Assembly: GCA_037447655.1 (NCBI GenBank)
Contig: JBBHKE010002260.1
Location: forward strand, 1 to 64,000
From: Zygnema cylindricum
Lineage: Eukaryota > Streptophyta > Zygnematophyceae > Zygnematales > Zygnemataceae
Length of the DNA: 64,000 nucleotides
Direction: 5' to 3'
Shown: piece after piece, positions 17,179 to 37,686 of the stretch
Layout: every line of letters begins with the position of its first letter
How positions within the stretch are numbered: position 1 is the first letter of the stretch
Program-made: the position numbers and the translations under genes
Notes under the pieces: generated by a model
What the model was told of the DNA's origin: nothing
Database searches by the model: none
The model's input: only the letters and a program-made list of their open reading frames with translations

Positions 17179-17436
17179 ACTGTGTCTGGTGTCATCGTTA
17201 CTTAATTATCCTAACATAGGTCTGTTGTTATGAGTTAAATCAGAAGGATTGTTCAAACTATGGAGTGTTGTAAGCATCATAAATTATTCAGCTATCTCAG
17301 CCTTTCCATTTATTAGCTTGCCCTCTAGAGTTAACTCTTTAACCTTTGGATCTGGTCGACTCAACTGAGAACTTTCAGCTAGTCTTTTCTGTTTCCCACC
17401 TCCTAGGCTTTCTGTTCTGCTAGGTATAAATCAATA

Positions 17437-17626
17437 TGTCGTGCATGTGTCAAATAACATGAAGATGCATGCAATATCATCAGCTGTGCTCAACTAACTC
17501 AAATGATAGCGAGATATTGTAAATGAAATAAAACATAAAAGTAAAAATGGATAAATACAACAACAAGCAAAGTGGAAGAAAAAGAAAGGTCAACGACTTA
17601 GCTGGTTATGGTTAGGTCGGTTTATC
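17437..17626 (-). repeat. F1 terminal short arm
   Basis: 190-bp segment starting TGTCGTGCATGTGTC on the plus strand, repeated at 19106-19297. In coding direction it forms the very end of the element, after the second long arm. The coding-side 5' long arm has no such segment next to it. Confidence 0.85.
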
Positions 17627-19104
17627 ACTAAGCCGATCGATGACCACTAGGCCCCACGGTCTATTTATATTCCTTGCAGGAGTTATCTTTATCGAGAATA
17701 ATCTGAATTTATACTCAAATAAAATGAATCAAAACATAAACAACCGAGAGAGATAAATAAAACTTGAAAATGACAATATGCCCGACACTTATGAAGTTTG
17801 AGATAGCCAAACTCAAAAGATGCGCATAAGCCAAATAGAAATAAATACACAATCTCAAGAAATAAAATAACAAATCAATAATCCCAACATGGAACTTCCA
17901 CACTAATTAAAATTCAGCCACAGCTGGGGAAAGAAGTTTGTGTTGTGAGATCGCGGTCGAAATCCACTCAAAAGGACGAGAAAAGTGAAGGGAAACCGTG
18001 TAGGTCTTGGCCGAAGCCGTATAGATTAATATGTAAGGCTTTACAAGATATTGATAATGTAATAGAAAACTAGACGCTTCACGCAAAGGCAGAAAATTGC
18101 CTCTAAGCTGTCCGGACAATTTTACAAATAAAAAGATGGTTGCAGAAAATCCTCAATACTGAAAATAAATAAAAATGAATAATTCGTGCACTTGAAAATT
18201 GTGTGCAGGAAATGATCCGAAATGAACTAAGTAACCAAAACTATGCCTAGTGAAAACAGGCCAATCAGAGTACAGCGTGCTATGTAAGTATTTGCGTCTA
18301 GTTCGGATTCGGCCAATAGGAGGCCGAAATCGTATGCCCTACGTTACATAATCTATAACCTACGGATTAAATCCTTTCCTATCTACATGTGAACGCGTGA
18401 ACCTCCAAATGGTTCACGACTTAAAATAGTCCAATCGCGTAGCCTCGTCAGAACTGTCAGCCGATTTGTTTGTCACTCGCATCAACGGTCTAGATGAGAT
18501 ATTACGAAAATTGTTTACGTTACGTCGACGGTCGAGATGCTCCCTCACGCGAAATGATTCAAATTTGTCGTCGGCCGGGATTTCGGAAAACGACACTAGG
18601 AACTGTAGGATTGCGGGTACAGTCCAACTTGTAGTCGCGGAAATTCCGAAAAAGGTAAGTCGTACGGTTTACTTGAAATCACCAAAGTAGCCGTTGGTGA
18701 AAATCGCGGGCGATAGATGCGGTACGGAAAGATTATTTGCACCGACGTGAATTCGAATATGAGTCGTCGGCCGAAAATCGGGGAAATAAAAACAGGTACG
18801 GCAGGACCGCAAATACGGTCCAAATTGTGGCCGCGGGAATCCCGGTCAATGTAAGTCGTACGGTCGACGCGAAATAATTAAATCCACCGTCGGCGGAAAT
18901 CGCAGAAAATATACGTCGTACGGTAGAACCGCGGGTACGGTCCATATCGTCTTCCCGGAAATTACGGAAAATGTAGGTTGTACGGTACACGTCGTACAGT
19001 CCTACGAAACCCAAATAACACCCAAATACAAATTAGTGTAGCGGCTGTCTGTCCTAACACCTAAATATAAACAACTAAAATGGTCGACAAGATGCGGCAT
19101 GACA
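17627..19104 (-). repeat. F1 3' long arm
   Basis: It matches 35919-37295 over its length (both run from ACTAAGCCGAT to GATGCGGCATGACA on the plus strand). 18500-19000 holds degenerate tandem units rich in GTACGG. The stretch 18182-18202 is an exact inverted copy of the primer-site region at 35898-35918. Confidence 0.88.
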
Positions 19105-19105
19105 G

Positions 19106-19297
19106 TTTCGTGCATGTGTCAAATAACATGAAGATGCATGTAATATCATTAGGTGTGCTCAACTTTAACTCAAATGATAGCGAGATATTGTAAATGAAAT
19201 AAAACATAAAAGTAAAAATGGATAAATTCAACAACAGGCTAGGTGGAAGAAAAATAAAGGTCAACGACTTAGCTGGTTATGGTTAGGTCGGTTTATC
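19106..19297 (-). repeat. F1 internal short arm
   Basis: A copy of the terminal short arm, one base away from the 3' long arm. At the join the plus strand reads GCATGACA-G-TTTCGTGC, a damaged palindrome; in F2 the same place reads GCATGACA-CC-TGTCGTGC. The polypurine tract lies on its other side. Confidence 0.85.
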
Positions 19298-19312
19298 CCC
19301 CCCCCCAGCTCT
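19297..19312 (-). other. F1 polypurine tract
   Basis: The minus strand reads AGAGCTGGGGGGGGGG directly before the internal short arm. F2 has GGAGCTGGGGGGGG in the same place. Confidence 0.8.
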
Positions 19313-19314
19313 TT

Positions 19315-20851
19315 AGCCTGCCGAGGAGCTGGCCAACACGACCGGTAGTTCGCGACATCCGTGGCAAAACCATTAACCATCAAGAACTGCCGACAATGGT
19401 GGCACCAAACACTCCATGTGAAACCCCTGACTGCAATTATCACAAAGTAACATGGTAGTTTCCCTGTCCGATCGATGACAAAAGGTACATGCCGTCGCCT
19501 CCGTAATCGGCATCCGCATAGGATCCATATCCTACGACAAATCAGGTAAGTCACATGGAGCACAATTCTTGGAGTGCTCTTGAAAAGTCCGTGTGTACGC
19601 TCCTTGTAATCCCAACATTCGGTTCGGATCCACCTCGAAGATCCGTAGGATGTGTGCAGAAACATCAGTGTCCAAAGTGTCGAAAGATTGCCTGCGAAGA
19701 TAAACATAATCTCCCACCTGATAGGGCTTCTGTTGGGGCCTGTAATTGCTGCTTAGAGTGGTGGCAAACCGAAGTGTGTCCCGATGTTGGGTAATCTGCA
19801 GGTTATCAAAAGCCATGGGCATTTCACGGGAAAAAAGCAAAGCACGACGAGTGAGTTTTTCCAAAAAAATAGTGTCAGACATCAGCGGAAGTGGAAAGCT
19901 TGCAGCTTTTTGAAAATTGCGACTGAGCAACTGTTGTCGCCCAAATAAAACATAATACCGGCTGAAATTAGCCAGACTAGCCTGAACTAACATGCGATAT
20001 CCTATGGTAACGTAACCGAGGGACTCGTCCAAAACCGAAATCTGTTTCTCTAAGCAATGCTTACGCAAGGCATGCTTAAATGCCTGAACCGCCCGTTCAG
20101 CCAGGCCATCGGCCTGGGGGTGATCCCGACTAGTACGACGATGATCGATGAGAGCCTCATCAAGCATCTCTTGAAATTCTCCCCGAAATTATGTACCTTG
20201 ATCCGTAAGGTCCTCGGCTGGGGCACCGTATCTCATAAGGACATGTTCCTTAAAAGCTGCGGTGGTTAACTTAGCTGTCTTATGAGGCAGGGCTACAACT
20301 TCTACCCACTTACTAAATTTTTTGATCATAATCATGATATATTGTTTCCCCCTACGTGAGATGGGAAAAGGTCCGGCCAAATCGACCGACCATCGATAGA
20401 AGAAACCCCTAATAGGTAGGGGTTGAAGCGTAGTTTGCCGGTTAGAGAAATAAGGTTGGAGACGGTCACAGGTGGCACACTTGTGTAGAATAGCAGCGAC
20501 ATCAGCTTGCATTCAAGACCACCAATACCGTGCCTGAACTAGACTTAACGTTCGCTTGGTACCGTAGTGACCAAGCTCGGTGTGAATCTGCTCAATGAGA
20601 GAAAGACGCTCGGTAGGCCGTGGAACGTGCCTATGGTTTCCGTCTACCAACAACCGAACTAAAGATCCCCCGAGCCAAAGGTAACCTTTGGCCCTCTTTT
20701 TCACTCTGTCTTCTTCATCAGAGATGGTGCCGGACCTGAAGGTCTGGGAGGATAGGAAAAGAATGAGAGGACCATCACGCCAAGGATCTGTGGCGGGACG
20801 GGGGTTCGGAATAGACGCCAGGCAGTAAGTAAGATAAGAACCCATCGACAT
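19315..20851 (-). pseudogene. F1 integrase (DDE type)
   Basis: This inserts element DNA. The zinc domain starts in the frame 20851-20513 (HTELGHYGTKRT) and continues after an in-frame TGA in 20512-20189 (KCATC). The catalytic core shows WSVDLAGPFP (first Asp), EDLTDQGT (second Asp) and, in 20167-19532, DHPQADGLAERAVQAF with the Glu. The C-terminal tail continues in another frame (19707-19261) and runs almost to the polypurine tract. Stops and frameshifts inactivate it. It matters because the split-repeat layout would predict a tyrosine recombinase, and none is seen. Confidence 0.88.
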
Positions 20852-22377
20852 GACGAAACATCGTTGTCATCGAAATCCTGTCGAACTCCGTTATCTGTTG
20901 TTCGGGGCAAAGGATTTCGGGAAATTCCGTCTACGTTAAGACTAAGCAGACCTGGTCGGTGAATTATTTCAACATCATATTCTTGTAAGATTAAAGCCCA
21001 TTGGGCTAACTTCCCGGAAAGCTTATCGTTCGTCATCAGCCAATGTAAGGGCTGATGGTCAGTTAAGAGTGTGAAAGGTTTTCCTTACAAATAATGGCGG
21101 AAGTGAACGACTCCCCAAACCGCGGCTAGACACTCTCCCTCATAGCTACTATAATTTGATTCGGCCCGGTTATTGCTTCTACTCGCGTAAGCAACTACGT
21201 ATTCCTCTCCGCTCAACTCTCTTTGTGTCAAAATGGCAGCGATTCCGGGTTTCCCAAAGTCTGTTTGAAGACAAAAAGGGAGTTTGTGATTGGGAGGACG
21301 GAGAATTGGAGCACTTGATAAAGCGGTTTTTAATTTTTGAAATGCGGAAATCTGATCGGGACCCCATATAAACGCCACTTCCTTTTTGAGAAGGTCGTTT
21401 AACGGAGATGCGATGGTGCTAAAATTAGATACAAACCTGCGATAATAATTAGCAAGTCCGAGAAAGGCTCGCAGACTGGTGAGGTCCGTGGGAGCAGGCA
21501 ATTTACTGATTGCCTCTACCTTTGCTTCGAGAGGAGTGATCCCCTCAGCCGAGATAAAATGGCCGAGGTAAGGCACTCCCTCGGCTCCAAAGGTGCATTT
21601 CGCTGGATGACATTTTAATCCGACCTTTTTTAATTCAGTCAATACCCATTTGATGTGAGCAGCGTGCTCTTCGATAGTAGCCGAGGCAATGATGAGGTCA
21701 TTGATGTAACATCTAGCAAACTTACAACCTCCAAGAACAGAGTCCATGACTTTTTGAAATACTGCCGGAGAATTTTTCAGTCCGAATGGCATTACGACCC
21801 ATTCCCATCGACCGTCGCTACCCCAAAAGGCAGTTTTATACCGGTCTTTTTCCTCTATCTCAATTTGATCGAATCCTTGACGTAGGTCAAGGATACTAAA
21901 ATACTTTGCTCCGCCTACGTGATCAAATATTTCTTCGGCAAGAGGCATGGGATGACGATCTTGAACTGTTCTAGCATTTATTTCACGATAGTCACCACAC
22001 ATTCGACGTTCAGTAAAACTACCCTCGAAATCCTTTTTCCGAGGCATGACAGTGGGAGCTGCAAATGTGGAGTCTGATCGATAGATTAGGCCAACTTCTT
22101 CTAGTTCAGCACATCACTTGTCTACCATTTCCCATTCAGTTTTTGACAAACGATGTTTCGGTTAAAATATCGGGCGATCATCTTCGAGATCTATCGACAT
22201 CTTATAAGCGGTGTGACGACCCAAATCGTTCATAGAAAAGGCAAAGGCATCGATATTTTGTAAAACTACGTCATTCAGTAACTCTTGTTCGGCCTTTGTT
22301 AGATTGGTGTCGAATTTCCATTTAGGAGCATCGGGATTTTCGGTTGTCATAGCTTCTATGGCTTGTGCAAAGGCCAA
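20701..22377 (-). pseudogene. F1 reverse transcriptase and RNase H
   Basis: The frame 22377-22162 is the lead-in to RT. 22047-21085 (320 residues) holds RT, with RRMCGDYREINART, YFSILDLRQGFDQIEI and VVMPFGLKNSP. The active-site box reads YINDLIIAS, so the first Asp is Asn and the enzyme is probably dead. The connection block SLRAFLGLANYYRRFV and the RNase H start LQTDFGKPGIAAIL follow, then YEGECLAAVWGV. 21036-20701 has the end of RNase H and a tether with IIHRPG. It is closer to other Gypsy RTs than to Copia. It directly follows the methyltransferase tail once F2 is removed. Confidence 0.9.
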
Positions 22378-22773
22378 CAGCTCATCTGCGATAAGTGTTT
22401 GACCTAACTTGTAAGCTATAGGTGTCTGTATAAGGCAATTAACCGAATGATTCCAACTGCGTGTTGGAAAAGCAGCACTCTAATGAAGAGTGGGTGGAAT
22501 ATGCATGGGACTTGTAGATTGGAAAGTCGTGTATGCGGGAATAGACCAGGACATATCGCTAGGATTTAGGAAATCGTAGATAGAGATTTCTGGAACTGGT
22601 GGATTTGGAGAAGGAAAGAGGAAAAATTGAAATGTGGTCCCTTGGAGAGTGGGACGAAAAAATTTTCTTAGTGATGCATTCCCCCCCCCCCCGAGCTGGT
22701 TGAGACGGATGTGCCTGAGAGTGGCGACCAGCTGCAAACCCAAGACCCAAAACAAAAGACAGAGACTGAGGGT
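22378..22773 (-). pseudogene. F1 methyltransferase tail and linker to RT
   Basis: When F2 and one GGGT copy are removed, the last methyltransferase codons (LLGRVIDP) read in frame into QSLSFVLGLGFAAGR here. This shows the two halves were one frame before F2 came in. A run of 12 C (22681-22692) then disturbs the frame. The rest is a linker of unknown function leading to RT. Confidence 0.7.
22681..22699 (-). other. G-run, possible central polypurine tract
   Basis: The minus strand reads CAGCTCG followed by an unbroken G-run, inside the methyltransferase-RT linker. It resembles the true F1 tract (GAGCTGGGGGGGGGG). It could prime plus-strand synthesis centrally, or be a slippage-prone homopolymer. 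Confidence 0.35.
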
Positions 22774-23002
22774 TGTCGTGCATGAGAGGCAAGTATGCGA
22801 ACATGCATCACAACCAGCAGAGTCATGCTAACCAACATATGTACCAGCGAAAATAAATATGAAAAGACAAAAATTATATACATCATGAGAAGAATAAAGG
22901 TGAAAATGACCCAAAGAGAGAAGGGGAAGAATACTCCCCTAGAGTGAAGTGGAAAGAGAGAAAGGGAAGTATACTCCCCTACAATGAGTGGACCCAATAA
23001 TT
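22774..23002 (-). repeat. F2 terminal short arm
   Basis: Starts TGTCGTGCATGAGAGG on the plus strand, nearly identical to 24171-24399. It forms the coding-side 3' end of the element, next to the target duplication GGGT. Confidence 0.88.
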
Positions 23003-24168
23003 ATGCTAAGCAAGGAGGTAGCCACTAGGCTCTCTGGTCATTATCACATTCTCTACAAGAGTTATCTCGTTACAACAGCAAAGGAAGAAATATTCCAACC
23101 GGAATAAGGGAAAATCCAAATGTGATAAAAAATACACTCCTTTCAAGCCAACCGAAATACAAACAAGACAAACACAACGCAACCAAACCGTCAAGCTGCC
23201 CGAGGAAGGCACAGCAAGGTCCAAATGTGCTCGCTCACGATCTCCAATCTCACACTTCCACCAAATGACAAACTTTGGAGGGAATCCTTCTGGACGTGGC
23301 CTTAGGCCGTGTGGATTAAAAACGAGGGCAGAAAAACAAGGAGAATAATCTTACTCTATCTAGCCTCTACAACTAGCTAGCAAGGAGAAGAAAGACACGT
23401 GGGAAATCGATGAGATTGAGAGCAAGAGAATAGCTCCGCTGCCAAGATAAAATTCTTGTCCAAAAGCTAAATTCTCTAAGTCTAAGAATTAGGCTAAGTA
23501 AGAGCTACGCTAGGCCTAAGCAAAATTAGCCTACGTCTAGTCTACTTTACATGCATCAAACTACTTAAGATGTTGGCCAATAGGCGGCCAACATCGTCTG
23601 CCGTACGCTTGACAAAATCCATTGTCCGAGGGTAAAAACCCTCCCTAACTACATGTATGCGCGAACCTACATGGGTTCGCGACTTAAATAAATAGATATA
23701 TCGAAGCGTTGCTCGGAAATTGTGATACGCCTCCAAACGATACTTCGCGTCGATACTCCCGAAATCGCGTGCATACGCACGAAACGACAAATACCGCACG
23801 AAACGAAACATATCGCACAAAATATTCCCAGAATCGCGATGCGTCGCGCAAACGATATATTGCGTCCATACTTCGGAAATTGTGTACCTACGCACGAAAT
23901 GAAAGGTATCGCACGGAATTAATGCTATACAGCCAAACGTGAAAATAAATGAATCGACGTGAAATCGCACGTGCAACGAAACAACATGAAAACGTGCGTG
24001 GATGCATAAAATCGTGCGTGCAAGCAAGATACCGCGCGTGCGTGGGAAATATCGCGCGTGCATTCGAAATACAGCTCGTGCGTACATTATATCATGCGCA
24101 CACGGCGAATATCGCGCGTGCGGGCATGATATCGTGCGCGCGGGCAACCGACACGATGCGGCATGACA
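23003..24168 (-). repeat. F2 3' long arm
   Basis: Matches 28855-30020 almost base for base, from ATGCTAAGC to GATGCGGCATGACA on the plus strand. 23960-24150 holds tandem CGCGCGTGCG-type units. 23452-23468 is an exact inverted copy of the primer-site region 28840-28856. Confidence 0.9.
23960..24150. repeat. Tandem CGTGCG-rich units in the F2 3' long arm
   Basis: Degenerate units of about 25-30 bases with ATATCGCGCGTGCG or ATCGTGCGTGCA. The spacing keeps a long frame open on the minus strand (24201-23542), which I do not count as a gene. Confidence 0.65.
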
Positions 24169-24178
24169 CCTGTCGTGC
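24161..24178. other. Palindromic arm junction in F2
   Basis: GCATGACA-CC-TGTCGTGC joins the 3' long arm to the internal short arm. The same two halves form the outer ends of the whole element, so this looks like a retained end-to-end junction. Confidence 0.75.
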
Positions 24179-24399
24179 ATGAGAGGCAAGTATGCGAACA
24201 TGCATCAGAACCAGCAGAGTCATGCTAACCAACATATGTACCAGCGAAAATAAATATGAAAAAACAAAAATTATATACATCATGAGAAGAATAAAGGTGA
24301 AAATGACCCAAAGAGAGAAGGGGAAGAATACCCCCCTAGAGTGAAGTGGAAAGCGAGAAAGGGAACAATACTCCCCTACAGTGAGTGGACCCAATAATT
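24171..24399 (-). repeat. F2 internal short arm
   Basis: A copy of 22774-23002, bounded by the palindromic junction on one side and the polypurine tract on the other. Confidence 0.88.
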
Positions 24400-24412
24400 C
24401 CCCCCCCAGCTC
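24400..24412 (-). other. F2 polypurine tract
   Basis: The minus strand reads GGAGCTGGGGGGGG directly before the short arm start AATTATTGGG. Confidence 0.78.
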
Positions 24413-25300
24413 CTTAGCTTTTAGAGGAGTTGGTCAACACAACCGCGGGCTTGGAACAGATATAGAGGCAGCAATGGTCAACAGGGTTGAAAGATAATGG
24501 AGAAGAGAGGCACTCCATGTGAAACCCTTAATCACCACCTGTACATGTATACACCCTCTGCAAACTCAACATCCCGTTAGTATCGCTGTCCACCACATAG
24601 AGAATGTGTGGAGAGACCTTGGTTTGGATGGTATCCAAGAGATGACGCGAGTCGATGAGAAAACCGGGCTCAGTGAAACTATCTTGCAAAGGTGGGGTGG
24701 CTGGAAGGATCCTTTTCTAGGAAAAGAGAGTCGCAATTGTCTTCCCTAAGGTCGATACTTGAAAATGCAAGGAGAGCGGAAGCAAAATGTGCCATGGTGG
24801 GCAACGGTTTGCGAGCCGAGACAAGAGGGAGGCAGATTTTGCGTCCCGGAAAATTAGAGGGACGGTAGGAGAAGGTCTAATCATGCATATCTACTCCCCC
24901 ACCGATGCGGAAGATAACATCCTGTCCCACTAAGCATTCGTAGTCGTTGCATTTGGTGACCAATGCTCGGACAAAAACCTTTACGGACTCACTCTCGGTT
25001 CCGTTGTGAAACCGAAAGACAAGCGGTTCCTTCGTAATTCCAAGCACCGGCTCCGTGGTACCGGTTGAAATGAGAAGGCGAGTAGAAATAGCTTGGAGCT
25101 TGTCTGCTGTCAGACCAAGCTTGGGAGCAAGATCCCGATCCAAGGATCACGAGTTTGGCTCCGGTGTCCATGAGAGGGAGAGAAGGAGCAACACCATTAA
25201 CAGAGAGGGACTTCTGAGAGTTGTCCAAGAAACTTATATGAGGGTCAAGGTCACGGCGCTCATCAGCGGTAACTGGTTGAATGACTCAAAGACTACGGTT
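24413..25300 (-). pseudogene. F2 protease fused to an integrase tail by deletion
   Basis: 25228-24989 has the retropepsin core SLPLMDTGAKLVIL (D-T-G). The next frame, 25143-24877, carries the rest (CNDYECLVGQDV). Further on, the minus strand encodes SEPGFLIDSRHLLDTIQTKV, which in F1 begins the methyltransferase region. It then runs in frame into SPHILYVVDSDTNGML, which in F1 is the integrase tail (SAHILRIFEVDPNRML). The join is near 24616. About 90 codons later the polypurine tract follows. So one clean internal deletion removed methyltransferase, RT, RNase H and most of integrase. Confidence 0.8.
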
Positions 25301-27191
25301 TAGCGGCACCGCCCTCAAAGCGGCGGCACCAGCGAACTCATGAACAACACTAGGAAAGGAAGAGGCCCTAGGGGCTTCATCAATCATGGTAGAAAGGATG
25401 CTTAGCCGTTCCTTGACTCGATGTGCATTATGTATGGTACTATCTAAAATAGTGAGAGCTTCAACCACAATTGAGGAAGCTCTTTCTTGTATAGGAGAGA
25501 GAGATTCTTTCTCGAAAGAAAGTGGAATACGGGAAATCTGTAATTTACCATCCCGATTGTGATCAGGCGAGCCCTTATCAAAAGTAGCTGCCCGTTGTTG
25601 GACAATAGAATCCCGAAGGATTCGGCCGGCCAACGATGACATGTGGATGACTCTCCTTGCCATCCTCGTGAATTGGGGTTTCATTTCGGCCATGAAGGCA
25701 TTAAATTGCTCCTTCATCATAACGCCCATCATGATTTGTAACTCGGCCTTTTCCCTCTCTCTTCGAGAGATTTTAGGCGGAGTCGCCTCTTTCTCGGTCT
25801 CGGTAGGAGGAGTGACCTGTTTGGCAGAACGGGTAAGAATTCTTTTGTTCTGGATCTGATTCTGATATGAGAAATTAGGTTCTTTAACATGACAATGGTG
25901 GATATAATGTCCTTTCTGGTTGCAATGGGTGCATGTGTCCGACTTATCCGGGCACATGCGGGCATCGTGCCCTGTTTTTCCACATCGGAAAAACACAATC
26001 GGTCTACGGAATTTAATGGCGGATTTCCCATGGCCGACGTCTTTGGAGGCCTATAGAAAGCCACAGGTTCTTCGGAGGTGGTGGGGATTGGTAAAATTGG
26101 TTTTTTTAAGATTCGGGATTGTCACGAGCATCCCATCACGACGATTGCATCTCATAACTAACCCCATATTCAGCCGCTTGCTCAAAGGTAAATTTCAGTC
26201 CGTATGTTTGACTGAGATGAGTCTAAATGAATATTTTCGATTGAGGAGGAAACTGTGCCACGAATTTTTGGAGAGCCTCTGCATCGGACATAAGGTTCGG
26301 TAATGCTTCCCGAAGGGTTTTTATTCTAGCTCGTAAAGCAGGGGCATCTCACTCGGCCTACGTTTCAAGTTCATCAATTCCTTAACTTGATCTGGATTTT
26401 GCATCCGGTATTTTTTTTGGAGAAGATCGAACATGACCGATAGCGGCTCACGTAAAGTAATTAATCTTCCTTGTCTAGCTGGAATTGCCGCACGGGCAAC
26501 CAATGCATAGAGCTGAGGAATCTCGAGATGGCTGGATAACGCTCATCCCCATTAACGTCCAATACTGCTAGAACACCTGCCTGGTAGGGAATTTCTACCT
26601 GGCCAAAAATGGCTGGAAGTCCTACAAAGGGTGGAGAGTACTCTGTCATTTGACAAATACTCTCATACTTCCGTGTGTATAAAGTGAGAGTCGAATCCCG
26701 AAGGTATCAGCCGAGGAGAGAGAAAGCGACCCTAAGGTCAAACTGGTCTTGAAAACGAAATGCCAAGTCACGCATTTCGGTATCATAAAACATACGAAAA
26801 TGGGAAAGAGACATGGTGTCTTTCATTCCTGAGAAACAAAATTGCATCTTCCCTATGTCCCCCTCTGAAGAGAAAGTCATGTCGTCAAAGGAAGAATGCG
26901 TTGGTGGTTCCAAATTTGGAGTAACCGGAAATTGAAATGTGAGACGATAGGAAAATTTTCCTTTGAAAAGTCCCCTTTGGATCTATCCAGGTATGACCTC
27001 GAGGAAACCGGTGATAATGAAGAGACTGTGGTCAATACTGACCGAACTGACGGAGATTCAAGGACCGCAACCGAAAATGGTGCCTCCTTAGACTCGGAGA
27101 AACTGGAAAGATCTAACTGCAGTTGAAAGAAAGTTGTCCCGCTGCGGGTAGATCCGGATTGATAACGTAAGTTATCCCAATCCGTGGGCAT
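25286..27191 (-). pseudogene. F2 Gag with CCHC knuckles
   Basis: Gag parts lie in the frames 27191-26877 (MPTDWDNL start, shared with F1), 26913-26707 (YDTEMRDLAFRFQDQFDLR), 26649-26461 and 26503-26321. The nucleocapsid is in 25996-25286: the first knuckle has lost its first Cys (FFRCGKTGHDARMC), while the second is intact (CTHCNQKGHYIHHC). A charged linker follows to the protease. Several frameshifts break it. The order and sequence match F1 Gag. Confidence 0.82.
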
Positions 27192-28839
27192 AAACGAAGA
27201 GAGAACCTTCGATTACGACTATGAAAGCATGGAACGGCCTAATCGAGGTGCGTCAAATGGAAGGCCAAACCACACAAGACAAGTCAACACACAAAGTCTC
27301 TATCAAGACCCGTGGTCAGATCTAGCAAAAAGTCGTAATACCAAAACCTCTACTTGCAAACAATGGAGCAAGGCCGAAGGGCCAGATCTATAAAAACAAA
27401 CAGAGAACTATCCAAGCACCTTTCGGTGCATATCTACAGTGACACAGATAGAAAATTGTCTAAACAGTGCCACCCACGGCAAGATCTATGAATGAAAATC
27501 CAATCCAGATAGTCACAGGGAAACTCAAGGCCACTCACGGCCAAGTAGCATGCAAGGAAAGCAAAGAAAATGCAAATGCTCAAAAAGAAAGGTTCGTAAT
27601 ATAACCAATCCACACCGATCCCCTACACGAGTATCGACACTTTATCGTAACGCTCCTGCACCCAAAAGGAATCGGGATACTTAAAAACATCTTTAATCCT
27701 CTGGTGAGTATTAAAAGTGAACCGGACTTGGTTGAAACAAGTCGGATTTTGCAGAGTCCTCAAGAACGTGATCCGCCTCGGTTCCGAATAATCGTACCCA
27801 GGACCACCACTAAACACCCAGGCAATTAGTATCCTTCTAGGGTATGCGTATCAGCGCTATGCCACGCTATACCCAACTATAAAGCAATGATAATAATATG
27901 TTATAATTCGTGCAAATCTAATTTATATGAATATATATTTTTACTTTGCTAGGTTTTATGAATGATTAAATTTGGCAAAGGATAAAGAAAGAGAATATCA
28001 AATCCACCACAGACTAAACATCAACTAGCGAGCAAATGAAGTTGCACTAAAGAAAAGAAAGATAAGAAATATTGAGAAAAGCTCAAAATAAAACACAAAG
28101 TATTGTAAAATTGGGACAAAATGTTTCCCAAACCCTAATACCACGCTGCAAAAATCAAAAATCTGCGACCAAGGAATGGTAATATGCTGACCTAGGGTTA
28201 AGAATTCCAAAAAATAAACTCTAAATCCGCCCAAACCCTAAATTTGCGGCCCAAACCCTAAATCTGCGGCCAAACCCTAATTCGGCAGATTAACCCTAAA
28301 AATCTGACACAAAATCAGACCTAAATCTGCGCAGACTAGAAATAGAGTGGCAACAAGATAGAAAGAAAAGATTGCAAGAAAGAAAGAAAAAGAACAAAAC
28401 AAAATGTTTTTTTTTTCTTTTTTATAAAATAAAATTTATAAATTTATTTATTTTTATAATATTTTCTTCAAAGGCAAAACTGAAAGCAAAAGCAATAATG
28501 GAGAGAAAGTAGAATGAAGCTTGTAGAAAAATAAAGCAAAGTCAAAAGGAAAAAACCAACTCAAAAATAGGTGGGAGAAAATCTAGAAATGAAAAAAATA
28601 GATTTTCTATTGAAAATAATTTAATTTTTATATTTTTCTTCCTCCAGATTTATTTTATCACACAAAACTGAGAAGTACAACTGAAAATGAAAGGTAAATA
28701 GGCAGGAAAATAGAAAGACAAAAACAAGAATAAAAACCGGATATGAAAGGTAATATTTTTTTAATGAAATAAAATTTATATTTTTAATAATTTAATATTA
28801 AAAAAATAGACTTTTAGAAAATGTGATTTTGAAAAGTGG
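27192..28839 (-). other. F2 5' leader
   Basis: Non-coding. 28228-28310 has several AAACCCTAA motifs spaced by GCGGC-like words. 28380-28830 is very AT-rich. No gene seen. Confidence 0.65.
28228..28310. repeat. Telomere-like AAACCCTAA motifs in the F2 leader
   Basis: Four or five CCCTAA(A) words separated by 8-12 bases (CCCTAAATTTGCGGCC, CCCTAAATCTGCGGCC and so on). In plants AAACCCTAA is known as the telo-box. This is not a true telomere array. Confidence 0.6.
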
Positions 28840-28856
28840 AGCTTTTGGACAAGAAT
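28840..28856 (-). other. F2 self-priming primer site
   Basis: The minus strand reads ATTCTTGTCCAAAAGCT at the inner edge of the 5' long arm. The same 17 bases occur on the plus strand inside the long arms (29304-29320 and 23452-23468). In element RNA they are therefore complementary to the primer site. No tRNA 3' end match was seen. Confidence 0.7.
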
Positions 28857-30020
28857 GCTAAGCCAGGAGGTAGCCACTAGGCTCTCTGGTCTTTATCACA
28901 TTCTCTACAAGAGTTATCTCGTTACGACAGCAAAGCAAGAAATATTCCAACCGGAACAAGGGAAAATCCAAATCCGATCAAAAATACACTCCTTTCAAGC
29001 CAACCGAAATACAAACAAGACACACACAACACAACCAAACCGTCAAGTTGTCCGAGGAAAGCACAGCAAGGTCCAGATGTGCTCCCTCACGATCTCCAAT
29101 CTCACACTTCCACCAAATGACAAACTTTGGAGGGAAACCTTCCAGACGTGGCCTTAGGCCGTGTGGATTAAAAACGAAGGCAAAAAAACAAGGAGAATAG
29201 TCTTACTCTATTTAGCCTCTATAGCTAGCTAGCAAGGAGAAGAAAGACACGTGGGCAATCGGTGAGAGTGAGAGCAAGAGAAAAGCTCCGCTGCCAAGAG
29301 AAAATTCTTGTCCAAAAGCTAAATTCTCTAAGTTTGAGAATTAGGCTAAGTAAAAGCTACGCTAGGCCTAAGCAAAATTAGCCTACGTCTAGTCTACTTT
29401 ACATGCATCAAACTACTTAAGATGTTGGCCAATAGGCGGCCAACATCGTCTGCCGTACGCTTGACAAAATCCACCTTCCGAGGGTAAAAACCCTCCCTAA
29501 CTACATGTATGCGCGAACCTACATGGGTTCGCGACTTAAATAAATAGATATATCGAAGCGTCGCTCGGAAATCGCGATACGCCTCCAAACGATACTTCGC
29601 GTCGATACTCCCGAAATCGCGTGCATACGCACAAAACGATAAATACCGCACGAAACGAAACATATCGCACGAAATATTCCCAGAATCGCGATGCGTCGCC
29701 CAAACGATATATCGCGTCCATACTTCAGAAATTGTGTACCTACGCACGAAATGAAAGGTATCGCATGGAATTAGTACTATACAGCCAAACATGAAAATAA
29801 ATGAATCGACGTGAAATTGCATGTGCGACGAAACAACATGAAAACGTGTGTGCATGCATAAAATCGTGCGTGCATGCAAGATACCGTGCGTGCGTGCAAA
29901 ATATCGCGCGTGCATTTAAAATACAGCGCGTGCGTACATTATATCGTGTGCACAAGGCAAATATCGCGCGTGCGGGCATGATATCGTGCGCGCGGGCAAC
30001 AGACACGATGCGGCATGACA
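28855..30020 (-). repeat. F2 5' long arm
   Basis: A copy of 23003-24168. It ends at the target duplication GGGT at 30021 without any short arm, which is the key to the split-repeat layout. Confidence 0.9.
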
Positions 30021-30024
30021 GGGT

Positions 30025-31113
30025 CTATGACACGACCTAATAAAGTGCATCTTTAACGTCCAGTAAGACCATGAGCGACCGTAGTGCCAGGAATGGAAGG
30101 CATAAGGTGTTCTCGTTCCGTAGAGGTAGGCTCTTCGAGCTCAACGGTATGAATGTTTCGGAGCATGCCAGAACCGTCATTAGAGAATGCATGTGAATGT
30201 GGGTAAGAAACTAAGGTAGGAAGCACCTTGAGAGGTTGACCCATGACATTGACATTGAAATTAGGGGGTCAGTCCTTTTGAATGCAAGGCTGCACCTTAT
30301 AAAAAGGAAGAAGGGCAGCCTCAATGTGTGTAAGAGGAGGACGAACTAACAAGTTGGCCTCACGGAGTCTACCAATATTGATCAGGTTCGTCCATTTGGA
30401 GCGAACCCGGTCTGCTAGTGAACCAGGGGGAGCCGCGTCAATAATAAGAGGCGGACCAATTAATTGTTCGATCCGTTGATAATCAGCCATGACTGTTGGT
30501 CTTCGATCATTATAGGCTGCAACATTTTCCAAGATATACCCCATAGGATGATCTAAAGTTTGTAGAAAATGCAGGATTCGAACCAATTCAAGACATAATT
30601 TGGTGCGGGGATCGGCTAATCCGAGACCTTTCCCGGCCCGAGACATTCCTTGGCACTCCAATCCGCCAAAAACTAGATCGATTGGACCAATCTCTATTAA
30701 GTGATGGTTGCCCACAATCCGAATATCTTGTGGGAGGGCAGTATGCATATCCTCGTATGCAGATTTTGGTAACAAATGCCGGTATTGGGAATGCAACATA
30801 TTACAATGATGTAATTGTGCTTTCCGTGCTAACGGATGAATCTCAACTGAATAATAAATTGGATTAATAATTTATTCCGGAAACATGCAAGGAGGGAAGT
30901 GCCTATTCCAGCGAAAAGGTCAAAAATCATCAATCCATTTGGATGAGGTTTCAATTGGACCGGATTCCAATTAATGGGAAGAAACCCAGAAGAGTCTGTA
31001 GGTACTAGGATTGTGGGAGAGACCGGAGAAAGTGGAATTGACAAGGTTTGGTTATAGATTCGGTCAAATTCCCTCGTATCTATATGAAAACCTGGGTCAC
31101 TGAAAAAATTCTA
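30025..31113 (-). pseudogene. F1 C5-cytosine DNA methyltransferase domain
   Basis: This would transfer a methyl group to C5 of cytosine in DNA. Motif I, FDLFAGIGT, lies at 30924-30901. After one frameshift near 30865, a motif II-like stretch is followed by the catalytic-loop motif IV, GGLECQGMSRAGKGLGL, at about 30667-30617, with the nucleophile Cys (30655-30653). Motif VI is YILENV (30535-30521), and an RVRSKWTNL block (30409-30383) fits motif VIII. After an in-frame TGA (30271-30269) the tail has STEREHLM and RCTLLGR (motif X-like). The usual Pro before the Cys is Glu. The domain sits between protease and RT in the Pol frame, reading in from protease by a frameshift near 31113. Its tail lies beyond F2 at 22773. 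It is damaged in this copy. Confidence 0.88.
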
Positions 31114-31843
31114 GTAAGTAAGAACTATCGGGCATAATTTCTTCCGCTGACAATGAATGAAATATTTCGGCCACCACCGAATTCCTTGAAAATGCAGGTA
31201 TGGATGTGGCCGAATTTGCCATAATAGGCATGGGCTTCCTAGGGAAAATTAGCGGAATGCAGATTTTCCGTTCCGGGAAGTTAGTGGGTCTATAAGAAAA
31301 TGTCTGATCATGCATGTCAACAACACCCCCTACACGAAATTTAACGTCTTGTCCCACTAGGCATTCATAGTCACTACATTTAGTGACTAGAGCGTGAACC
31401 GGGATTTCAGCAAAGTCTGTGGTCATTCCGTTTTGGAACCTGAAAACAAGCAGTTCCTTAGTGATTCCTAAGACTGGCTCAATTGTACCCGTTGAGGTTA
31501 ACAAGCGAGTAGAAGTGGACTGAAGCTTCTCCGGAGTTAGACCAAGCTTCAGTGCAAAGCTAGAGCCCAATATCACTGGCTTTGCACCCGTATCCATGAG
31601 AGGCAGGGAAGGGGCTATACCGTTGATTAATAATGCACCCTTCCCGTTATCCAAAAAACCGATGTGAGGATCAAGGGACTTTCGTTCCTCTATGGAAATA
31701 GGCTGAATAGCAACAAGATTTATGTGCAGCTGAAGTGCTTGTAACGCGGCAGCTGCAGCTGAGCTATCAGGGGTAAAAGAGATAGGGGAGATTTTTGGTG
31801 AGTCGGTAATCATAGTGGATAGAATGCACAAGCGTTCCTTCAC
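31097..31843 (-). pseudogene. F1 aspartic protease
   Basis: The frame has 248 residues, with a retropepsin core LPLMDTGAKPVIL (D-T-G-A) at about residue 80 and later CSDYECLVGQDVKFRVGG. The protease would process Gag-Pol. It overlaps the Gag-nucleocapsid frame end by a few bases in another frame, and the methyltransferase frame follows after a frameshift near 31113. The domain itself looks complete. Confidence 0.85.
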
Positions 31844-33710
31844 GCGGTGTGCCTCGTGTATAGTTCAATCCACCATGTTGAGAGCTTCAACCGCGATGGC
31901 TGAAGCGGTTTCGGGCAAGGGAGGAGAAGGCTCTTTAGTGAATGACAAAGGAATGTTCTGTTAGGGGTTTTACCGTCACGGCTGTGATCGGTCGAACCTT
32001 TGTCCAACGTAGCCTCTCGTTGGTGGATGGTGGAATCTCGTAAGATTCGACCTGCCAACGTGGGCATGTGTACAACAGTGCGAGCCATGCCAGTAAATTG
32101 TGGTTTCATTTTAGTGATGAAGGCTGCGAATTGTTCCTTCATCATAGCCACCATTTGATCTTGCATTTCTATACGCTCTCTCTCTCTTCGAGATACCTTA
32201 AGTGGAGTGGTGTCCTTCTCCGGTTCTTTAATCGGTTGAACCGGTTTTGCGGATCGAGCGGGAATGCCACCATTTTTAATTTGGTTTTCATAGGAAAATT
32301 CTGGGTTCTTTATATAACAACGTTGGACATAGTGTATGGTTTGCTTGCAATGTGTACAGGTAACGGTTTTGTCTGGACACATTCGGGCATCATGGCCCGT
32401 CTTCCCACATCGAAAACATAATGGGTTTCCAGGAGCAATAGGTAGGGTTCCCATGGCCGAGACTTTAGGAGGTCGGTTGTTAGGACGAGGATTGTTCCAT
32501 GGTGGAACAAACAGTTCTTTCGGGACCGCTTTAGGACGGTCATGGGCTTCCCACCAACAATTTTGCATTTCGTATTCCACAGCATTCTGACGGCTTGGTT
32601 GAAAGTGGACTTCAAGCCGTACATTTGAGTCAGGTGACTCTGAATAAATTTATAAGACAGACTCGGAAACTGTCCTATAAATTTCTGAACAGCTTCAGCA
32701 TCCGACATTAAGTTCGGCAATGCTTCACGAAGAGCTTCCATACGAGCACGCATGACAGGGGCGGTCTCTCCTAACTTCCGTTCGAAGTTCATTAACTCAC
32801 GAAATTGGTAAGGGTTTTGCATACGGTATTCCGCTTGCAACATTTCAAACATGAAAGAGAGCGGATCCAATATAGGGATCGTCATTGCTGGTCGTGCTGG
32901 AATTCCAACACGTGCGGCTATAGCGAACTGCTGCGCTATTCCCACAACTGCTGCTGTAATAACATCACGGTTGAGATCAAGGACTTCCGGAATAGCCGAT
33001 TGGTAGGGAATTTCTGGTTGTCCTATAATAGCAGGAATCCCAGCGAAAGCTGGAAAAAACTTTGTCATCACAAGTACGGAATCATACTTGCGGGAATAAA
33101 GAGTAAGGGCTGAACCGCGAAGGTAACGCCCTAAAAGAGAGAAAGCGACCCGTAGGTCGAACCGATCTTCGTACCGAAATGCAAGATCACGCATTTCGGT
33201 ATCGAATAGCATTCAAACATGCAATAAAGTCATGGTGTCCTTCATTCCTAAAAAACAGAAATGAAGGCGACCCCCTCTCTCGGATGTGGAAGCCATTTCC
33301 AATAATGGAATGCTTGGGGATTATAATAAATTTGTAATTTGTGGAAACCAAAAAGATAATGAATTGGATTCCGACCCGTCAACGGAATCGTGGTCTGATT
33401 CCTCTTTGAAAAATGTTGAAGACACTGATGATAGGGAAGATACTGAGGTGAGAGTAGATCGAACCGAAGGGGAAATTTGACCCGAGATATTTAGGAAAGG
33501 ATGGTCCAAAAGACTTGATAAAATCAGATGGTCCGAATTCCGTTGGCCTAAACGAGGCCGACGATCGAGTGGTTGCGACAAGATAATCAAGATTATCCCA
33601 ATCGGTGGGCATAAAAAATGATAACACCAAATGATGACCAGATAACAAAACCGATCTATCCGATATGCTTTAAATGCCAGGCCACAACACTCTCTTGTCC
33701 AATCAGCCAA
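31840..33710 (-). pseudogene. F1 Gag with two CCHC knuckles
   Basis: The N-terminal piece is in frames at 33710-33321 (contains MPTDWDNLDY, as in F2). The main Gag part is 33212-32310 (300 residues; YDTEMRDLAFRYEDRFDLR start, then MLQAEYRMQNPYQFRELMNFE). Nucleocapsid follows in 32580-31840, with CFRCGKTGHDARMC and CTHCKQTIHYVQRC, both intact CX2CX4HX4C, then a basic linker. Frames change at about 33250, 32500 and 31840, so at least three indels are present. Gag would form the particle and bind RNA. Confidence 0.85.
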
Positions 33711-33919
33711 TCAATCTCTAATAGGGCCTCAATGGCTTGATCTTTCAGTAAGCCGTATTACCAAAACCTTCTACTCTGCAAACAAGGGGACAAGGGCGAA
33801 GGGCCAGATCTATAAAGGCAAATAACTTACTATCCAAGCACTCCTAAGTGCAGATCTAAAGCGGCACAATCCACAAAAGAGCTAACCAATGCCTCCAACG
33901 GCAAGATCTATGGAAGATA
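33711..33919 (-). other. F1 5' leader, part next to Gag
   Basis: Non-coding leader, interrupted by the solo LTR at 33920. Similar to the F2 leader around 27350-27500. Confidence 0.6.
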
Positions 33920-35293
33920 TGTTGTTTTTGAAGATTTAGTTTCGTGCGTATGTGAAATTTGATGCGCACGCGACGTTTCGTGCGTATGTATTTACGTTAT
34001 ATACTGTGGAGGTTCGAAAGGATTTGTGGATTGGGGGAGTAAGTGTACGATCAAAATTAAAGTTACGTGTGAGTGGCGCGAACAAACATTTGAAAATGTA
34101 CGGCGGATCGCGAAGCGATCCGATATGAAATATGAATTTAAGGTGACGAAAAATTACAAATTAAGTGACGCGAAGAAGCGTACGAAAAATACGGAATACG
34201 AAATGGAAATGGACGGCGGATCGCTTCGCGATTCGATTTGAAATATTCAAAGAATTTGAAAAGTACGCCGGCCATATGAAACATAATGCGACAGACTGCA
34301 TTTATTAAATGTGACGCCGCCGTTACGGAGCGTCGTATTTGACACGCGACATTTATGACGAAGTACGTGATTTCGGTACGGACAAGATTTGTATGGTACG
34401 GATTGTTTGACAAGTGATTCGTGGTACACGTGGAAGGCGGATGGCGTCAGCCGATTTTTTAAGGGACCACATTGTTTTTATGACACATTATCTAGTGGAC
34501 CGTACATATGCGATGTCGGTTCACTACGTGGACTTATCGACAAGTGACTAAGCAAGTTGTCACTTATGACGCGGATTTTTGGATGCGTCGGTGTAAATAT
34601 TTGAAGCATCAATGTTTTGTCTTATTTGAATTAATGATTTAGTGTTGATTAAAATAGTTATATTTTACGTGATTAAAGAGGATATCGACACTTTAATTTA
34701 TGTGTCGTATTTGCAGACAAGTGTACGCTTACGATTGCTTGACTTTCAGGTGTACGCTTACGATTAGTTTTATTTAATGACAGTTATGTAATTTACGTTG
34801 GTTATTTTGACACTTAGTGATTTGTTAACAGCTCACAAGTGTATATATAGGTTTGAGCTTCATTAGAACTTTGATCAATGCTGGTTAGTAAAGTGGGGAC
34901 CGAAGATGTAGACTTTTAGGGTTGCCGATTAGGTCATGCACTTTGAATGATATAATGATTATTTAATTATACTTTGATTATACTTTTGTTTATGTGAAAT
35001 GCATTTGTCTTTATTATTTATTTATGTTATTTTATATATATATGTTTGATATGCATTTTTTCTATGCATTTGTCCTAGGGTTTGTTTATGTCGATTATTC
35101 CATCAAACCTTAGATGATGTCATAGGGTTTATTTATGTTGATTATTCCATGAAACCCTAAATGTTGTTTGTTGCGTCTGTGTACGCATATGGAGGATGCA
35201 TTTCATATGATTGTTCGTCGACCTATTTTTGCTTAGCTTTTTGCATGATAGTTTGGGTCGCTTCTGCGGTCTATTTTAGACTAAAGAACAACA
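33920..35293 (+). mobile_element. Solo LTR S1 in the F1 leader
   Basis: Ends are TGTTGTTTTTG and AGAACAACA. A perfect 5-bp target-site duplication AGATA flanks it (33915-33919, 35294-35298). Removing it restores similarity to the F2 leader. A TATA box (TATATATAG, 34842-34850) suggests plus orientation. A small hairpin GGATCGC-GAA-GCGATCC lies near 34103. It matches the LTR that begins at 63404. No coding region. Confidence 0.88.
34842..34850 (+). promoter_or_regulatory. Probable TATA box of LTR S1
   Basis: TATATATAG about 440 bases before the LTR end, a usual place for the LTR promoter. This is the only basis for the orientation. Confidence 0.45.
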
Positions 35294-35298
35294 AGATA

Positions 35299-35897
35299 TC
35301 CCACTCCGGACAAAGAAAACTCAACTAAGGCCACTCAAGGCCAGATAACAAGCTGGGAAAGCTAGACAAATGCAATGCTCAATACAAGTGGATTAACACT
35401 AATCCACTCCAAACACAATCCCTCTATACGATCAACCGACTACCTTAACACGCGCCTATACCCGCAAGGCATCGTGATACTTACATAACACTCTTAGCAA
35501 TCAGGTGATTGCCAAGGGTGAACTGCGGTTGTTCGCTACAACCGAAGTTTTGCAGAGCTCCCAAGAACGGATCCGCTCCACTAACTCCACTCCTTAGTGA
35601 AGTATGTCTCAATGTGAGCAAACGATGCCCCTTATATATAACAAAGAAAATGGGGAAAACAAAAACCAAATACTTAAGTTAGTGTAGTATATTGTTGGCC
35701 GAAAATTGGCCAATAAGACAAAATGCAACTAACAAGCAAATGGTAATTATATATGTAAAGCTAGTTATAGATTTTTGTAGAAATGTATCTATAAATATAT
35801 ATTTTTGATTTTTTTTAAATGTTTTTGTATTTTTTTCTTTAGATAAAAAGAAAACCGAAATTGAAATAAAAACAAACAAGCGAGAAAAGAAAATACG
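35299..35897 (-). other. F1 5' leader, part next to the primer site
   Basis: Non-coding leader, AT-rich between 35740 and 35890. No gene seen. Confidence 0.6.
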
Positions 35898-35918
35898 ACA
35901 ATTTTCAAGTGCACGAAT
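35898..35918 (-). other. F1 self-priming primer site
   Basis: Lies directly inside the 5' long arm. The minus strand begins ATTCGTGCACTTGAA. The same 21 bases occur on the plus strand inside the long arms, exactly at 18182-18202 and with one mismatch at 36465-36485. Element RNA could thus fold so that an arm segment pairs with this site. No tRNA match was seen. Confidence 0.7.
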
Positions 35919-37295
35919 ACTAAGCCGATGGATGACCACTAGGCCCCACGGTCTATTTATATTCCTTGCAGGAGTTATCTTATCAACGATAATCTGAATT
36001 TTTGACTTAAATAAAACAAATCAAAGCATAAACAACCGAGAAAGACAAACAACAAACTGAAAATGACAATATGCCCAACACTTATGATGTTTGAGATAGC
36101 CAAACTCAAAAGATGCACATAAGCAAATAGAAATAAATACACAATCACAAGAAATAAAAACAACAAATCAATAATCCCAACATGCAACTTCCACACTAAT
36201 AAAAGCTCAGCCACAGCCGGGAAAAGAAGTTTGTGTCGTGAGAACGCGGTTGAAATCCACTCAAAAAGACGAGAAAAGTGAAAGGAAACCGTGTAGGTCT
36301 TGGCCGAAGCCGAATAGATTAATTTGTAAGGCTTTACAAGATATTGATAATGTAATAGAAAACTAGACGCTTCACGCAAAGTCAGAAAATCGCCTCTAAG
36401 CTGTCCGAACAATTTTACAAATAAAAAGATCGCTGCAGAAAATCCTCAATACTGAAAATAAATAATTCCTGCACTTGAAAATTGTGTGCAGGAAATGATC
36501 CGAAATGAACTAAGTAACAAAACCTACGCCTAGTGAAAACAGGCCAATCAGAGTACAGCTTGCTATGTAAGTATTTGCGTCTAGTTTGGATTCAGCCCAT
36601 AGGAGGCCGAAATCCTATGCCCTACGTTACAAAATCTATAACCTACGGATTAAAACCCTTCCTATCTTCATGTGAATGCGTGAACCTCCAAATGATTCAC
36701 GACTTAAAATAGTCCAATCACGTCACTTCGTCAGAACTGACAGTCGCTTTGTCTGTCACACGCGTCAACGGTCTAGATGTGATGTTACGAAAAATTGCAT
36801 GCTCTGCGTCGACGGCCGAGATGCTACTCCACGCGAAAAAATTAAAATCTGTTGTCTCCCGAAATTCACGGGAATGAAAGTTGGTACGGTACGATTATTT
36901 GTACGAGCGCAAATTCGAAAATGAGTCTTCGGCGGATATTCCGGGAAATGAGAATAGGTACGGTAGGATCGTAGGTACGGTTCACTTTGTTGTCGCGAAA
37001 ATTCCGGCAAATGTTAGTCGTACGTTTTACGTGAAAAATCGAATCCACCGTCGGCGGAAATCACGCAGAATATATACTGTACGGACGACGTGAAATGACG
37101 AAATCCACCGTCGTTGGAAATCACGGAAGATGTATGTCGTACGGTCGAACTCGCCGTCGGCAAAAATTACGAACAACGTAAGTATGTACGGCCCTGCAAT
37201 ACCCAAATACACTCAAATATAAATTAGTGTGGTGGATGCCCGTCCTAACACCTAAATATAAACAATTAAAATGACCGACGAGATGCGGCATGACA
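35919..37295 (-). repeat. F1 5' long arm
   Basis: A copy of 17627-19104, without a short arm on either side. It contains degenerate tandem units of about 70-90 bp with GTACGG (36840-37190). Confidence 0.88.
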
Positions 37296-37686
37296 ACAAT
37301 ACTAACTGTTTCTATGTCGTACTATGCCTTTAAATGAATTAGTCTAATTATTTATGTTTATATATTTATCATACCCAATATACTCTAACATAGTTCCTAG
37401 GCTACAAGATAAAGCTATCGGCTATCTTTTCCTTGACGGACGGCGGGAACCAAAATCATATCCTGGGTCTATCAAAACAATTTTGGTAAATATACCAAAA
37501 GCTACAACCTGTCTCTCTCTCTCTAGGCAACATGGGTAGCCATGGCTCTAGCTGTTTCCCCAACCTTCAGTGACTACGACAAGTGTGGGGGTTTGGAGAG
37601 TGGAGCGAGAGGCATGCTGCTTTTGCAGACTTCCTTTTAATTAATTTTTCCTTTATTCAAACCTAGAAGACAAATACATTTCAACA
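37296..37686 (-). repeat. Copia LTR fragment, minus orientation
   Basis: Similar to the 3'-proximal part of the other Copia LTRs here (GCCATGGCTCTAGCT, then TTCAGTGACTACGAC). It ends ATTTCAACA at 37686, the usual plus-strand end of a minus-oriented LTR. The other end was lost or displaced at the F1 insertion. It seems inserted in the C0 5' LTR. Confidence 0.7.

What the first reader, a model, noticed from the sequence alone, without database searches (positions are those of the whole stretch)
30025..31113. DNA cytosine methyltransferase built into a Gypsy polyprotein (Gag-protease-DNMT-RT-RNase H-integrase)
Seen: FDLFAGIGT, GGLECQGMSRAGKG, YILENV, RVRSKWTNL, STEREHLM and RCTLLGR occur in the order of C5-methyltransferase motifs, between a D-T-G protease and a Gypsy RT. 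With F2 taken out, the tail reads in frame towards RT. Known: acquisition of methyltransferases by retrotransposons has been reported (de Mendoza and colleagues, 2018, in dinoflagellates and the alga Klebsormidium, as I recall), so the idea is not new, but this position and host may be. Inference: the element may methylate its own DNA, to hide from or tune host silencing.
Basis: partly seen in the sequence, partly recalled or inferred. Interest (0 to 1): 0.9.

Follow-up and report, generated by a model that had tools for sequence, protein, structure and literature searches.

The report
Retrotransposon with built-in DNA methyltransferase
A decayed Ty3/Gypsy retrotransposon here carries its own DNMT3-like DNA-methylating enzyme inside its polyprotein; elements of this kind have been described in a streptophyte alga, so this is another member, with unusual end repeats that raise a question about how it integrates.

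Summary
On the minus strand, between an aspartic protease and a Gypsy reverse transcriptase, lies a C5-cytosine methyltransferase (Pfam PF00145, E 6e-9; 5e-10 with flanking pieces). Its best solved relatives are DNMT3A/B/C. This copy is dead: MTase and RT have frameshifts or stops, and the RT motif reads YIND. The fusion is probably a lineage trait: database protein P0009 carries a stretch homologous to the end of the F1 MTase region (42 of 81 residues identical; 0 of 1000 shuffles as good) and a related RT in one open frame, though P0009 is itself damaged further on.

The host element (F1, 17437-37295) and the relative nested in it (F2, 22774-30020) both have A-coding-B-A-B repeats, TG...CA ends and short flanking duplications (F1's is one base off). 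The same repeat order is reported for KnitGypsy-Dnmt3 of Klebsormidium nitens (de Mendoza et al. 2018), so I file this as a new member of that kind. The host species is unidentified; the named RT relatives closest to it are streptophyte.

Self-methylation of new cDNA is plausible but unproven: one near-invariant residue is changed (ECQ for PCQ), and the elements are not CpG-depleted. Most novel open reading: a DDE-integrase element that inserts a circularly permuted cDNA.

The parts
17437..37295 (-). F1: whole MTase-bearing Gypsy element, interrupted by F2
   Evidence: repeat pairs, TG...CA ends
35919..37295 (-). F1 repeat A1 (5' end), begins TGTCATGCCGCATC
32310..33212 (-). F1 gag, first frame
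   Evidence: ORF; no Pfam match; homologous DNA in F2
31840..32649 (-). F1 gag, second frame, CCHC zinc knuckle at 32377-32418
   Evidence: PF00098 E 3.7e-4, 20.9 bits against 20.8
31097..31864 (-). F1 aspartic protease, MDTGAKP at 31577-31597
   Evidence: PF13650 E 6.8e-5, 23.9 bits against cut-off 24.3
30862..31110 (-). MTase N-terminal piece with motif I FDLFAGIGT, shifted frame
30269..30871 (-). MTase central ORF: ECQ (catalytic Cys), ENV, RxR, WTN
   Evidence: PF00145 6.2e-9; DNMT3A 1.4e-7
30021..30268 (-). MTase C-terminal piece (motifs IX-X by eye), one internal stop, cut by F2
   Evidence: 42 of 81 residues identical to P0009, 0 of 1000 shuffles as good; outside the PF00145 match
22774..30020 (-). 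F2: nested relative with gag and protease-like DNA, no DNA match to F1 MTase, RT or IN, A-coding-B-A-B; flanked by ACCC at 30021-30024 and 22770-22773
28855..30020 (-). F2 repeat A1
   Evidence: 94.4% to 23003-24168
24171..24399 (-). F2 repeat B1, preceded by G-run (24400-24407)
   Evidence: 96.9% to 22774-23002
23003..24168 (-). F2 repeat A2
22774..23002 (-). F2 repeat B2, ends CATGCACGACA
21085..22320 (-). F1 reverse transcriptase and RNase H, with stops; active-site motif reads YIND
   Evidence: PF00078, PF17919, PF17917 for 21085-22113
19532..20800 (-). F1 integrase pieces (H2C2 20516-20800, rve core 20192-20512, rest without Pfam match), with stops
19106..19297 (-). F1 repeat B1, preceded by G-run
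17627..19104 (-). F1 repeat A2
17437..17626 (-). F1 repeat B2, ends CATGCACGACA; followed by TATTG (17432-17436), cf. TATTG at 37297-37301 one base outside A1

Best explanation
F1 is a degenerate copy of a Ty3/Gypsy-type retrotransposon whose Pol polyprotein carries a DNMT3-like C5-cytosine methyltransferase between protease and reverse transcriptase, the same kind of element as KnitGypsy-Dnmt3 of Klebsormidium nitens. Shown here: the domain, its place, a second element copy (P0009) with the homologous tail joined to RT in one frame, and the A-coding-B-A-B repeats. Inferred: in live copies the enzyme is made with RT as part of Pol and methylates cytosines of the new cDNA before or at integration, so that the copy enters the genome already marked. 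This could keep it tolerated, shield it from attack on foreign DNA, or damp its own expression. This copy cannot do so itself.
For: PF00145. DNMT3A/B/C are the best solved relatives by sequence and 9 of the 10 Foldseek matches at E<=0.001 are chains of DNMT3 structures, HaeIII being the other. Cys, ENV and RxR are kept. P0009 holds the homologue of the F1 tail and RT in one ORF. F1 RT, P0009 and four more unnamed RTs form one clade, support 100/99. The same DIRS-like repeat order is stated for KnitGypsy-Dnmt3. SymbioDIRS DNMTs methylate CG in yeast.
Against: A protein search with the central ORF found no relative (136 candidates of about 110-350 aa, none at E<=0.001). The tail of P0009 has no PF00145 match of its own and only a weak one to DNMT3A (E 0.057); P0009 is itself damaged (YIDN, similarity to P0002 lost at residue 487 of 533). 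The residue before the catalytic Cys is Glu, where 85 of 85 viral relatives have Pro. The KnitGypsy-Dnmt3 enzyme showed no activity in yeast, which its authors call inconclusive. CpG o/e of F1 internal regions and F2 is 0.90-1.02, against 0.55 and 0.69 for two neighbouring element blocks, which does not look like a lineage of long-methylated sources. By blastp the MTase is no nearer to DNMT3A (50 bits) than to five phage enzymes (50-60 bits). No full-length intact relative was obtained.
Confidence: 0.8

Rival explanations
1. The MTase is a separate cellular or phage-type gene that happens to have inserted between PR and RT of this copy.
For: F2, a relative, lacks it. Scores to phage MTases are as high as to DNMT3A. 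The PF00145 core itself was not seen in any second copy; P0009 shows only the stretch after it.
Against: P0009 has the homologue of the F1 tail and RT in one ORF. Protease, central MTase and tail share a frame, and tail and centre abut. F2 has no DNA match to RT and integrase either, so it reads as a deletion derivative.
Confidence: 0.07
2. The MTase was taken from a phage, giant virus or bacterium, not from a host DNMT3.
For: phrog_116 E 8.6e-13. Five phage MTases score 50-60 bits by blastp against 50 for DNMT3A. The stretch CQGMSRAGKGLGLADPRTKL resembles phage motif IV.
Against: PDB and fold searches rank DNMT3 first. The tree joins it to DNMT3A (94/98), but as two very long branches. Among the best 80 viral loci (of at least 477) segment identity is 27-41%. 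Klebsormidium copies were placed with DNMT3.
Confidence: 0.2
3. The MTase fold is kept for another job, such as binding RNA or DNA during reverse transcription or methylating RNA, not for marking cDNA.
For: ECQ in place of PCQ; no activity of the Klebsormidium domain in yeast.
Against: The catalytic Cys, ENV Glu and RxR are all kept. Ka/Ks below 0.2 in Klebsormidium copies shows selection but does not tell the functions apart.
Confidence: 0.2

Closest known systems
KnitGypsy-Dnmt3, Klebsormidium nitens (de Mendoza et al. 2018, PMC5890265)
   Same: Gypsy domain set; DNMT3-type MTase in the Pol ORF; A-coding-B-A-B repeats as in DIRS elements (section 9 and Fig. 4 legend)
   Different: The host here is unidentified. 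The one K. nitens RT protein read (not known to be that element's) is 53% identical and in another clade. The domain order within Pol is in a figure not seen. TG...CA ends and target duplications are not mentioned for this element in the sections read.
SymbioDIRS-Dnmt3 (same paper)
   Same: DNMT3 within Pol, same repeat order
   Different: Tyrosine recombinase in place of a DDE integrase; DIRS RT
DNMT3A/B/C catalytic domain
   Same: Best solved relatives by sequence and fold
   Different: About 28-35% identity; ECQ instead of PCN; no companion domain seen
Gypsy elements with other captured domains (AlkB in orchid Gypsy, PMC9289625; abstract, outline and passages read)
   Same: An extra modification enzyme in a Gypsy element
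   Different: m6A RNA demethylase in an additional ORF

Membership tests
C5-cytosine DNA methyltransferase (PF00145) | Profile match above the curated cut-off | tested here: met
   36.1 bits, and 39.8 with flanking pieces, against 22; profile positions 2-113 of 324 only. NCBIfam dcm matches at E 9.4e-8 but far under its cut-off (32.1 against 100.65)
C5-cytosine DNA methyltransferase (PF00145) | Catalytic Cys in PC, ENV, RxR | tested here: inconclusive
   C, ENV and RxR present; the Pro before Cys is Glu, against Pro in 85 of 85 viral relatives
DNMT3 | Groups with DNMT3 rather than with other MTases | tested here: inconclusive
   Best PDB and fold matches are DNMT3; blastp does not separate it from phage enzymes; the tree has long branches; no plant DNMT3 available
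KnitGypsy-Dnmt3-like elements | Gypsy RT, RNase H and DDE integrase with an MTase in the same Pol | tested here: met
   Domains in one element in order. Same Pol is inferred from the shared frame of PR and MTase and from P0009, whose tail is only the part after the PF00145 core
KnitGypsy-Dnmt3-like elements | A-coding-B-A-B repeats | tested here: met
   F1 and F2
KnitGypsy-Dnmt3-like elements | Common descent with the Klebsormidium element | not testable with these tools
   Its sequence was not obtained
DIRS order | Tyrosine recombinase, no target duplication (recalled definition; recombinase also) | tested here: not met
   DDE integrase pieces; ACCC duplication at F2

The most novel reading that the evidence does not exclude
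A DDE-integrase (Gypsy) element that inserts a circularly permuted cDNA. The G-run (likely plus-strand primer site) lies before B1, so ordinary reverse transcription would give B-A ends; yet the integrated copies start with A (TG) and end with B (CA) and, for F2, have a 4-bp duplication. That is what cutting a two-LTR circle at its inner B|A junction would give. The B1-A2 junction (CA, a 1-2 base spacer, TG) would be the integrase site, and the MTase might act on that circular intermediate.
Probability: 0.25. Interest if true: 0.7.

Novelty: new member of a known kind. Interest (0 to 1): 0.42.

Why it matters
It adds evidence, from raw DNA and a second element copy in a protein database, that MTase-carrying Gypsy elements are a lineage and not a curiosity of one alga. 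The repeat order together with the TG...CA ends and flanking duplications makes a concrete, testable puzzle about how such elements replicate and integrate, and about why an element would carry the writer of its own silencing mark.

Tried and rejected
A protein search with the central MTase ORF gave 136 candidates and none at E<=0.001 (candidates limited to 0.55-1.75 times its length). Viral contigs scanned with the RT, an RT alignment, P0009 and P0002 gave no relative. GTDB contigs gave 13 loci with Gypsy RTs (of 143 stretches), at most 42% identical; tblastn of the MTase pieces on them gave no clear match, the best being the motif I piece on L008 at E 0.002 on the other strand than the RT. 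Rfam (gathering threshold) and tRNA scans of the window gave nothing. The structure model of the central ORF is weak (mean pLDDT 56.8, pTM 0.52, 25 rows), so its fold matches count only as support. The MTase tree is dominated by long branches. The start of P0027 did not align with the MTase tail. I rejected 'DIRS element' because of the DDE integrase and the target duplication.

I therefore make no claim that the finding is absent from print. Of de Mendoza 2018 I read the abstract, sections 6, 9, 10, 11 and passages; of PMC12344493 section 5 and passages; of PMC11244446 passages; of PMC9289625 the abstract, outline and passages. A paper on plant DNMT3 (10.1038/s41467-019-09496-0) could not be opened.

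Changed after a recheck of the calls: P0009 is no longer called intact or metagenomic, its tail identity is 42 of 81, and because its tail has no PF00145 match and P0009 is damaged I lowered the main confidence from 0.85 to 0.8 and raised the insertion rival from 0.04 to 0.07.

Full report
What is there. The window holds nested LTR-type elements on the minus strand. F1 spans 17437-37295 and is cut by F2 (22774-30020). In F1 the order is gag (two frames, CCHC knuckle), aspartic protease, methyltransferase, [F2], reverse transcriptase with RNase H, integrase. The MTase ORF 30269-30871 matches PF00145 at E 6.2e-9. With the pieces on either side, X at the breaks, the match extends to motif I at E 5e-10 and covers profile positions 2-113 of 324.

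This copy is broken. The motif I piece is in another frame than protease and central MTase, there is a stop after the central piece and another in the tail, and F2 cuts the end of the domain. RT has stops, and its catalytic motif reads YIND, where 8 of the 9 relatives in alignment A1 have YIDD and P0009 has YIDN. F1 A repeats are 89.6% identical (197 gap columns left out) and F2 A repeats 94.4%, in keeping with F2 as the younger insertion.

The fusion is probably a property of a lineage. Of 258 proteins similar to the F1 RT (E <= 1e-20, 120 listed), I read 30. One, P0009 (533 aa, source 'ena', contig of 23.8 kb, organism not given), begins with a stretch that aligns with the F1 MTase tail (score 190, 42 of 81 residues identical, best of 1000 shuffles 53) and runs on into the RT in the same ORF. 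Limits: that stretch has no PF00145 match at E <= 1 and only a weak one to DNMT3A (30 aa, E 0.057); it is called MTase tail because in F1 it abuts the PF00145-matching ORF in the same frame. P0009 is also damaged: YIDN, and its similarity to P0002 stops at residue 487 of 533. The F1 flank to the right of F2 does not match P0009 significantly by itself (152 of 1000 shuffles as good), so the last residues of the domain are not proven. In a tree of 32 RTs (30 of the 120 listed proteins plus two from the window), F1, P0009, P0001, P0002, P0023 and P0027 form one clade (100/99), apart from the Calypogeia, Klebsormidium and Closterium sequences. I did not see the tail in the other four; their predicted starts lie downstream of it or, for P0027, do not align with it.

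What the MTase is. A database search with the central ORF found nothing. Best solved relatives by sequence are DNMT3A (1.4e-7), 3C (2.3e-6) and 3B (2.8e-5), then HaeIII (2.3e-4) and DNMT2 (0.07); no DNMT1 is among the 35 listed at E <= 1. Of the ten Foldseek matches at E <= 0.001, nine are chains of DNMT3 structures and one is HaeIII, from a weak model. Against this, blastp scores to five phage MTases (50-60 bits) equal or exceed DNMT3A (50 bits), and phrog_116 scores 8.6e-13. A tree of 50 rows (47 viral: 45 of 60 dereplicated sequences, the 60 coming from 74 of suitable length among 85, plus two named phage ones; DNMT3A, M.HhaI, F1) pairs F1 with DNMT3A at 94/98, but on branches of 7 and 5.3 changes per column. 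DNMT3-like is the better reading, not a proven one. Whether the family shares this or this copy mutated is unknown.

Repeats. Each element has A-coding-B-A-B. F2: A 28855-30020 and 23003-24168, B 24171-24399 and 22774-23002. F1: A 35919-37295 and 17627-19104, B 19106-19297 and 17437-17626. All four A copies begin with the same 14-mer, which occurs nowhere else in the window within two mismatches (chance mean 0.26). Both B2 copies and the F2 B1 end CATGCACGACA; the F1 B1 has one mismatch, and one further one-mismatch site lies at 2318-2328. F2 is flanked by ACCC on both sides (chance about 0.0045 for four bases). F1 has TATTG on both sides, but one base off on the left (chance about 0.0035). 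A G-run lies directly before B1 in both. I saw no tRNA-type PBS after A1, by eye and from recalled motifs. de Mendoza et al. write of the Klebsormidium element that the repeat structure is that of a DIRS retrotransposon and the domain composition that of Gypsy, which matches.

How it may work. Published data: SymbioDIRS DNMT domains methylate CG in yeast; KnitGypsy-Dnmt3 did not, which the authors call inconclusive. Methylation of the new cDNA is their proposal for the DIRS elements and remains the likeliest role here. Two facts are cool towards it: ECQ, and CpG o/e near 1 (0.90 and 1.02 for internal F1, 1.01 for F2, 1.45 for F1 A1) against 0.55 and 0.69 in two neighbouring element blocks. After insertion CpGs did decay: 20 of 65 differences between the F2 A repeats and 21 of 138 between the F1 A repeats are CG to TG/CA, as expected of methylated copies. 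A second, separate question is integration. The G-run before B1 implies B-A cDNA ends, while integrated copies start at A and end at B; a two-LTR circle cut at the inner B|A junction would give this form. That is inference.

Known or new. MTase-bearing retrotransposons in dinoflagellates and streptophytes are known (PMC5890265, abstract, sections and passages read). A 2025 paper repeats that some DNMT3 members are embedded in retrotransposons, naming LTR Copia and DIRS (PMC12344493 section 5), which disagrees with the Gypsy label of 2018. This window is a further member, in a host that I could not name; the named RT relatives with the highest scores are Calypogeia fissa (54%), Klebsormidium nitens (53%) and Closterium (about 50%). 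The own-genome search did not complete in 13 tries, so copy number and intact copies are unknown.

Noticed in passing
5175-17401: A second Gypsy element (RT ORF 14745-16577, integrase piece 6425-7183) in two long stretches 85% alike, with about 0.7-kb repeats head to tail near 11941-13351; its RT is 37% like F1's.
   Followed up: partly
37500-63700: Many repeats 64-95% alike on both strands, copia-like by eye, with Pfam gag_pre-integrase and rve at 55576-56244; CpG o/e 0.55 over 42-60 kb.
   Followed up: partly
22774-30020: F2 carries gag and protease-like DNA but no DNA match to F1's MTase, RT or integrase, although its ends match F1's; it may be a non-autonomous relative moved by F1-type enzymes.
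   Followed up: partly
1-4000: CpG o/e of 1.44, far above the copia-rich part of the window; no gene identified.
   Followed up: no
L001-L013: Contigs filed under bacterial or archaeal assemblies (for instance Methanosphaera, Erysipelotrichaceae, Streptomyces) encode Gypsy-type RTs; probably eukaryotic contamination.
   Followed up: no
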